Positions 421 through 52,187 of a DNA stretch of 64,000 nt are shown piece after piece. The first letter of the stretch is position 1. Each line of letters begins with the position of its first letter. The DNA is taken from NCBI GenBank assembly GCA_963556255.1, contig OY744608.1:9038603-9102602 (forward strand), written 5' to 3'. The notes below the pieces were generated by a model. That model was not told the origin of the DNA. It saw only the letters and a list, made by a program, of their open reading frames with translations, and made no database searches. The position numbers and the translations under genes are program-made. The DNA comes from Allolobophora icterica. Lineage: Eukaryota > Annelida > Clitellata > Crassiclitellata > Lumbricidae.

Positions 421-494
421 TCCGGCACTGACAACAATTTGCCAATCACCCAGCGGCGTTTGATCAGAAAGAGCCAGCTTCAGAGAGATAATTC
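421..494 (-). CDS. TEP-B exon 7 (MG2), last exon inside the window
   Basis: 74 nt; acceptor tcgcag, donor gttagt; [10 protein letters not shown] (A has GVIS). The equivalent of exon 8 would lie left of position 1. Confidence 0.9.

Positions 495-52187: not shown

What the first reader, a model, noticed from the sequence alone, without database searches (positions are those of the whole stretch)
421..52187. Two head-to-tail CD109-like TEP genes from a recent segmental duplication
Both copies keep the same seven 5' exons with identical lengths, introns in the same order and the same upstream flank. By my reading 11 of 203 residues differ, and five of these fall in the first half of exon 4 (MG1/MG2 border). 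That clustering hints at selection or conversion in one surface patch of an immune-type protein. More copies may lie beyond the window.
Basis: partly seen in the sequence, partly recalled or inferred. Interest (0 to 1): 0.75.

Follow-up and report, generated by a model that had tools for sequence, protein, structure and literature searches.

The report
Four tandem annelid CD109-like immune genes

Summary
In detail: seven 5' exons of identical length, 11 of 203 residues different, five of them in the first half of exon 4. Both genes lie on the minus strand. B is complete in the window: 36 exons, 52187 to 18264, 1476 aa, with A2M-family domains, thioester GCGEQ, a His 116 residues after the thioester Cys, a KRRKR site and a C-terminal cysteine stretch. 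A is cut by the left edge. The window lies in a head-to-tail array of four copies, Z-A-B-C, on one 71-Mb contig. Unmerged haplotypes are very unlikely: pairwise dS is 0.15-0.26, A-B aligned noncoding identity about 85%, and only four places match the thioester exon at 90% or more, all in this array. "Recent" is too strong. The exon-4 cluster is marginal (scan p 0.035-0.16; local dN/dS about 0.78) and one of six such clusters between A and B; the densest is the linker, exons 18-19 (24 of 70 residues differ). Silent divergence varies by exon, which suggests patchy gene conversion without proving it. Function, inferred: secreted thioester opsonin or antiprotease. New member of a known kind.

The parts
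421..494 (-). Gene A exon 7 (last A exon in the window)
688..739 (-). Gene A exon 6
1303..1373 (-). Gene A exon 5
2170..2323 (-). Gene A exon 4 (five residue differences from B in its first 25 codons)
3165..3190 (-). Gene A exon 3 (26-nt micro-exon)
4085..4239 (-). Gene A exon 2 (MG1)
6482..6558 (-). Gene A exon 1 (start codon, signal peptide by eye)
6735..13184 (-). Upstream flank of A, matching 53142-61572 upstream of B in collinear blocks
18264..18370 (-). Gene B exon 36 (C-terminal cysteine stretch; true 3' end uncertain because a donor-like GTAAGT follows the last cysteine codons)
19165..19267 (-). Gene B exon 35
21093..21246 (-). Gene B exon 34 (receptor-binding domain)
21771..21877 (-). 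Gene B exon 33
22168..22230 (-). Gene B exon 32
22575..22733 (-). Gene B exon 31 (end of TED)
23207..23424 (-). Gene B exon 30 (TED, GGFSSTQ)
24974..25154 (-). Gene B exon 29 (TED)
25322..25396 (-). Gene B exon 28 (TED)
25566..25728 (-). Gene B exon 27 (TED; IHTDMQ, candidate catalytic His 1084)
28157..28238 (-). Gene B exon 26 (TED)
28564..28740 (-). Gene B exon 25 (thioester motif GCGEQNM, Cys 968)
28890..29037 (-). Gene B exon 24
29363..29491 (-). Gene B exon 23
30172..30237 (-). Gene B exon 22
30706..30819 (-). Gene B exon 21 ([10 protein letters not shown]2M domain)
31787..31904 (-). Gene B exon 20
32303..32462 (-). Gene B exon 19 (variable linker, PETWLW)
32806..32872 (-). Gene B exon 18 (variable linker)
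35924..36061 (-). Gene B exon 17 (KRRKR furin-like site)
36182..36331 (-). Gene B exon 16
36613..36816 (-). Gene B exon 15 (A2M_BRD)
37156..37218 (-). Gene B exon 14
37630..37752 (-). Gene B exon 13
39305..39538 (-). Gene B exon 12
39990..40262 (-). Gene B exon 11
41815..41917 (-). Gene B exon 10 (MG3)
42322..42424 (-). Gene B exon 9 (MG3)
42777..42816 (-). Gene B exon 8
44198..44271 (-). Gene B exon 7
44510..44561 (-). Gene B exon 6
45126..45196 (-). Gene B exon 5
46081..46234 (-). Gene B exon 4
47358..47383 (-). Gene B exon 3 (26-nt micro-exon)
48896..49050 (-). Gene B exon 2 (MG1)
52111..52187 (-). Gene B exon 1 (start codon, signal peptide by eye)
53142..61572 (-). Upstream flank of B, matching the upstream flank of A in collinear blocks

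Best explanation
The window covers two neighbouring members (A partial, B complete) of a four-gene head-to-tail array (Z-A-B-C, all on the minus strand) of thioester-containing proteins of the iTEP/CD109 group, in what is most likely an annelid. Shown: the array, gene structure, domains, thioester and histidine motifs, divergence. Inferred: the array arose by serial unequal-crossover duplication of units about 44-51 kb long, old enough for 15-26% silent divergence, with some exons partly re-homogenised by gene conversion. Each protein would be secreted, cut at the furin-like site and later in the variable linker by a target or host protease; this would expose the thioester, which, helped by the histidine, would bind hydroxyl groups on microbial surfaces (opsonin) or trap the protease. 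The copies would differ mainly in which protease triggers them (linker exons 18-19).
For: Exon models of B with GT-AG introns throughout and an open 1476-aa frame; collinear with protein P0001, 62% identity over the whole query; Pfam MG2, MG3, A2M_BRD, A2M, TED and receptor-binding domains above cut-off; best solved relative CD109 (8s3o); tree places B with P0001 and, starred, with Helobdella inside an annelid-containing clade. Array of four. Motifs: thioester Cys 968, His 1084, KRRKR from 658, Cys 1461/1464/1467/1468. A-B whole gene dS 0.148, dN 0.047, w 0.32. Linker exons 18-19 A-B dN 0.289, dS 0.51. Uneven dS among exons: A-B p 0.0005, and 0.012 without exons 18-19; B-C 0 of 2000 shuffles, and p 0.0005 without them. 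Long runs of shared silent states: A-B exons 25-27, p 0.011 (three copies) and 0.018 (four copies); A-C exons 4-7, p 0.0006 (four copies) (nine pair tests, uncorrected). PMC7016707 (passages and section 12 read) gives 35-43 exons, a C-terminal cysteine stretch and, in BgTEP2, BgTEP4 and BgCD109, a His about 110 residues after the thioester for snail TEPs.
Confidence: 0.8

Rival explanations
1. A and B are two alleles (haplotypes) wrongly placed in tandem by the assembler.
For: Exons 1-7 alone show only dS 0.063, within reach of hyperdiverse animals (recalled, no call).
Against: Whole-gene dS 0.148 and about 85% aligned noncoding identity, with long stretches not alignable; four copies, not two, at pairwise dS 0.148-0.257, in order on one 71-Mb contig; the thioester exon has four listed genomic matches at 90% or more, all in the array, none on another contig (8 matches, all 8 candidates scored). 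An intron query meant to double-check this did not complete.
Confidence: 0.03
2. The five differences in exon 4 record positive selection on an exposed MG1/MG2 patch.
For: Five of 11 differences fall in 17 residues, scan p 0.035 at that post hoc width; nonsynonymous change in that stretch is in the top 12% of 25-codon windows; between A and C exons 1-7 have dN 0.118 against dS 0.108.
Against: p 0.068 and 0.16 at widths 20 and 26; dN/dS about 0.78 locally, Fisher p 0.37; five other clusters at least as dense; dN is below dS in exons 1-7 for A-B and B-C, and not significantly above it for A-C (64% of bootstraps); the 17-residue stretch is of average variability in the family.
Confidence: 0.1
3. 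One gene conversion tract replaced the first half of exon 4 in A or in B.
For: Differences stop in mid exon 4: seven counted changes (5 nonsynonymous, 2 synonymous) in the first half, one in the second.
Against: A-only states at 95 and 106 and B-only states at 94 and 99 when compared with Z and C; neither version matches Z or C over the stretch. Donors outside the array were not examined.
Confidence: 0.05
4. The array is not immune but developmental or signalling-related, like vertebrate CD109 (cell-surface, GPI-anchored).
For: CD109 is the nearest solved structure and the name given to many relatives. The C-terminal cysteine stretch does not decide: snail BgCD109 has it too.
Against: No hydrophobic tail in the modelled end of B, nor in P0001, judged by eye; multi-copy family with clusters elsewhere in the genome, which fits an immune family better.
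Confidence: 0.17

Closest known systems
Mollusc iTEP/CD109 genes (Biomphalaria BgTEP1-4, BgCD109; PMC7016707)
   Same: 35-43 exons across the snail TEPs against 36 here; no extra domains; C-terminal cysteine stretch; thioester; His about 110 residues downstream in BgTEP2, BgTEP4 and BgCD109.
   Different: Different clade in the tree; 36-42% identity to the Biomphalaria proteins listed; here four close copies in one array.
Annelid CD109-like proteins: Helobdella robusta, Arenicola marina, Capitella teleta
   Same: Same starred clade of ten rows in the tree.
   Different: 36-47% identity, partly over half of the query; none of the three Helobdella rows nor Capitella shows the R-x-[KR]-R site in that stretch, Arenicola does.
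CD109 antigen (solved structure 8s3o; human, recalled)
   Same: Best solved relative, E 2.4e-218, collinear in two stretches; the residues VIH around the histidine are shared in the printed part of the alignment.
   Different: Vertebrate CD109 is GPI-anchored (PMC7016707); no hydrophobic tail in the B model.
Anopheles TEP1 and other TEP loci
   Same: Thioester protein whose divergence is shaped by exchange between loci (abstract of PMC2576239).
   Different: There the exchange was shown with population data; here there is only one genome.

Membership tests
Thioester-containing (A2M/C3/TEP) superfamily | A2M-family domain set in order, including TED and receptor-binding domain | tested here: met
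   Six Pfam families above cut-off in B, in order; no Pfam MG1 or MG4 match was listed
Thioester-containing (A2M/C3/TEP) superfamily | Thioester motif GCGEQ | tested here: met
   Present in the A, B and C models and in Z exon 25
iTEP/CD109 group | About 1450 aa with no C345C, anaphylatoxin or LDLa domain | tested here: met
   B is 1476 aa, only A2M-type Pfam hits
iTEP/CD109 group | C-terminal cysteine stretch | tested here: met
   Four Cys in CxxCxxCC form in A, B and C; Z exon 36 is identical to B in sequence
iTEP/CD109 group | Placement in the tree with named CD109-like proteins, apart from A2M and ovostatin | tested here: met
   Starred split of three A2M-type rows from 28 CD109-type rows
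Vertebrate-type CD109 | GPI-anchor signal at the C-terminus | tested here: inconclusive
   No hydrophobic tail in the B model or in P0001, judged by eye, but the last exon is uncertain
Complement C3 | C345C and anaphylatoxin domains | tested here: not met
   No such Pfam hits in B
Macroglobulin complement-related protein (MCR) | LDLa domain and mutated thioester | tested here: not met
   No LDLa hit, thioester motif intact
Tandem duplicate array | Collinear copies in the same orientation on one contig | tested here: met
   Z, A, B, C at C7:8953954-9000786, 9008869-9045160, 9056866-9090789, 9108152-9141840, all minus
Functional opsonin or antiprotease | Covalent binding or protease trapping | not testable with these tools
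   No expression or biochemical data

The most novel reading that the evidence does not exclude
The array works as a small library in which conversion keeps thioester-domain exons nearly alike between copies while the linker exons 18-19 are left to diverge, giving secreted effectors with one warhead and different protease triggers.
Probability: 0.2. Interest if true: 0.5.

Novelty: new member of a known kind. Interest (0 to 1): 0.3.

Why it matters
Clustered TEP genes are known in mosquitoes (recalled), and hints at neighbours in molluscs (two Solemya proteins with consecutive numbers on one contig). By their titles, none of the papers listed (20 of 26 shown; 12 of 12; 10 of 28) treats an annelid TEP array. 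Four close copies, with several more distant loci in the same genome, give a natural series for asking whether the bait-like linker is the fast part of invertebrate thioester proteins. The result also corrects the reading of the exon-4 cluster, which looked special because only the first 203 residues of both copies lie in the window.

Tried and rejected
Plus-strand pieces were tried first and gave no Pfam match for eight of them; the gene is on the minus strand. Mutually exclusive duplicated exons (known in scallop TEP, recalled) were looked for only by tblastn of P0001: apart from off-order hits with E of 0.7 or more, each part finds one collinear place in B; strongly diverged duplicates could be missed. 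Haplotype artefact: rejected as above. Exon-4 selection and single-tract conversion: not supported as above. A structure model of MG1-MG2 was not attempted. The relatives did not name the species; among the proteins listed in the two homology searches (42; the best 120 of 2702) none is closer than 62%. The tree used 30 chosen homologues of the 158 proteins held; the conservation test used 125 of the 158 (P0010-P0042 left out), 59 after redundancy filtering at 85%. The furin-site count, 90 of 126 rows, includes many redundant Haliotis isoforms. On checking the draft I added the A-C comparison of exons 1-7, corrected the histidine to residue 1084, and raised the odds of the selection rival from 0.08 to 0.10 and of the CD109-like rival from 0.15 to 0.17 (the cysteine stretch does not separate it).

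Full report
Observation. This is what the sequence shows. Both copies read on the minus strand. Exon lengths are 77, 155, 26, 154, 71, 52 and 74 nt in both, and the B introns have GT donors and AG acceptors. The 26-nt exon 3 was found from the A/B alignment of the region. 20 of 609 nt differ, counted as 11 nonsynonymous and 9 synonymous changes. The upstream flanks match in collinear blocks out to about 6.6 kb (A side) and 9.4 kb (B side) from exon 1.

What B is. A rough translation of B found protein P0001 from a JGI set, which served as guide. tblastn of P0001 finds a collinear series of hits on the minus strand from 49.1 kb to 18.3 kb and a second from 4.3 kb to 0.4 kb, plus a few off-order hits with E of 0.7 or more; exon 1 was taken from the A/B match. 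Splice sites were chosen by script, giving 36 exons and an open frame of 1476 aa. Pfam finds MG2, MG3, A2M_BRD, A2M, TED and receptor-binding domains. CD109 structures are the best solved relatives. The thioester Cys is residue 968 and the candidate catalytic histidine residue 1084, 116 further on, as in the A and C models; a KRRKR site starts at 658 and four cysteines lie at 1461-1468. An R-x-[KR]-R site occurs in the matching stretch of 90 of 126 rows, many of them redundant. The end of the last exon is uncertain, since a donor-like GTAAGT follows the last cysteine codons.

Where it comes from. In a 31-row maximum-likelihood tree B pairs with P0001 (100/100), then with Helobdella (96/92), inside a clade of eight (100/99) and of ten rows (100/99) that includes Arenicola and Capitella. 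Capitella has a long branch, and P0001, Arenicola and two Helobdella rows have unusual letter make-up. The organism is therefore probably an annelid; this is inference. The genome has 1,117,693,669 bases in 328 contigs, and the window is C7:9038603-9102602.

Genome-wide, matches to the first part of the TED domain fall at 17 places by my count of the 61 listed: four on C7, four on C11, six on C1, one each on C6, C19 and C14. DNA of B exon 25 has eight matches; the four at 90-100% are the four array copies and the next are at 81-87% on C1 and C19. No further near-identical copy was listed for that exon, which speaks against unmerged haplotypes.

Divergence. Whole-gene values (dS, dN): A-B 0.148, 0.047; Z-A 0.189, 0.078; Z-B 0.228, 0.074; Z-C 0.233, 0.114; A-C 0.224, 0.121; B-C 0.257, 0.125 (Z without exons 2 and 14-19). 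Aligned noncoding identity A-B is 84.7% over 7352 sites, which overstates similarity because only alignable parts are counted. So the A-B split is old compared with alleles; a date needs a rate that I do not have.

The exon-4 cluster. At the width chosen after seeing the data (17 residues) the scan p is 0.035; at 20 it is 0.068 and at 26 0.16; all 20 nucleotide differences scanned at 60 and 80 nt give 0.078 and 0.074. dN/dS in the half-exon is about 0.78 against 0.27 elsewhere in exons 1-7, not a significant difference (Fisher p 0.37). Over all 1471 aligned residues of A and B there are 131 differences and six clusters with five or more in 17 residues: 90-106, 305-336, 412-442, 684-745 (up to 11), 836-865 and 1327-1347. 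The exon-4 stretch is in the top 12% of 25-codon windows for nonsynonymous change. Family entropy at the 11 differing sites is a little higher than average (2.38 against 1.98, p 0.075), while the 17-residue stretch is average. With Z and C, positions 95 and 106 are A-only changes and 94 and 99 B-only; position 90 varies in three ways. Against this reading stands the A-C comparison: over exons 1-7 dN is 0.118 and dS 0.108, the only large region with dN at or above dS; dN exceeds dS in 64% of bootstraps for A-C, 23% for B-C and 1.5% for A-B. Low dS there may itself come from homogenisation.

The linker. Exons 18-19 differ at 7 of 22 and 17 of 48 aligned residues between A and B, with dN 0.289 and dS 0.51; 0.6% of contiguous windows of that length have as high a nonsynonymous rate. 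Because dS is raised as well, dN/dS is 0.57 for A-B, and dN exceeds dS in 4%, 40% and 3% of bootstraps for A-B, A-C and B-C. This fits an old, unhomogenised stretch, or poor alignment through indels, at least as well as positive selection.

Patchy exchange. Silent divergence differs among exons more than expected for A-B (p 0.0005; 0.012 without exons 18-19) and B-C (0 of 2000 shuffles; p 0.0005 without them), and for A-C only with exons 18-19 included (0.034; 0.44 without). Exons 1-7 have lower A-B dS (0.064) than the rest (0.146 without the linker; permutation p 0.0074). The longest runs of shared silent states are A-C in exons 4-7 (p 0.0006 in the four-way test, but the longest A-C run has p 0.48 in the three-way test without Z) and A-B in exons 25-27 (p 0.018 and 0.011); the remaining pairs are not significant, and nine pair tests were made without correction. 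I read this as suggestive of gene conversion, which is reported for Anopheles TEP1 (PMC2576239, abstract read), not as proof.

Mechanism. From the family (established knowledge, and PMC7016707 section 12) the likely action is cleavage in the linker, exposure of the thioester and covalent attachment, with His as in complement factors. Secretion, processing and function in immunity are inferred. Novelty: snail TEPs of the same build (PMC7016707), tandem expansion of other immune families such as TLRs in oyster, which also has several TEPs (PMC4346834, passages read), and the mosquito TEP loci make this a new member of a known kind. That no annelid TEP array is described in print rests only on the titles in the listings.

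Noticed in passing
L014:6861-7292 and L015:2901-3332 (C7:9015463-9015894 and 9021503-9021934): Two 432-base direct repeats, 100% identical, 6 kb apart, in intron 26 of gene A: looks like the ends of a young LTR-type insertion.
   Followed up: no
L010:219-2440 and L011:5001-7224: 2.2-kb direct repeats, 99.8% identical, 14.8 kb apart inside gene Z; recent local duplication, two insertions or an assembly effect.
   Followed up: no
window 25791-26174 and 27744-28126: A direct repeat pair of about 385 bases, 91% identical, in intron 26 of gene B, the same intron that carries the insertion in A.
   Followed up: no
C7:8996659 (Z exon 2) and C7:9127923-9128051 (C exon 13): Z exon 2 lacks the AG acceptor (reads AC); C exon 13 has GC at the usual donor place. 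Z may be spliced differently or decaying.
   Followed up: partly
C7:9157000-9222600 (L022-L028): Plus-strand open frames of about 285-406 aa, three of them repeated in a second tandem unit about 50 kb on (9159677, 9164774, 9171697 matching 9211298, 9215497, 9221333 at 70-73%); they look like NHL-type beta-propellers by eye, not tested.
   Followed up: partly
window 62674-62848: Array of about four 42-base units, 97% alike.
   Followed up: no
G000 contigs C11 (37.32-37.56 Mb) and C1 (72.70-72.84 Mb): Two further clusters with TED-domain matches, four and three thioester-part matches, suggesting other tandem TEP groups in this genome.
   Followed up: no
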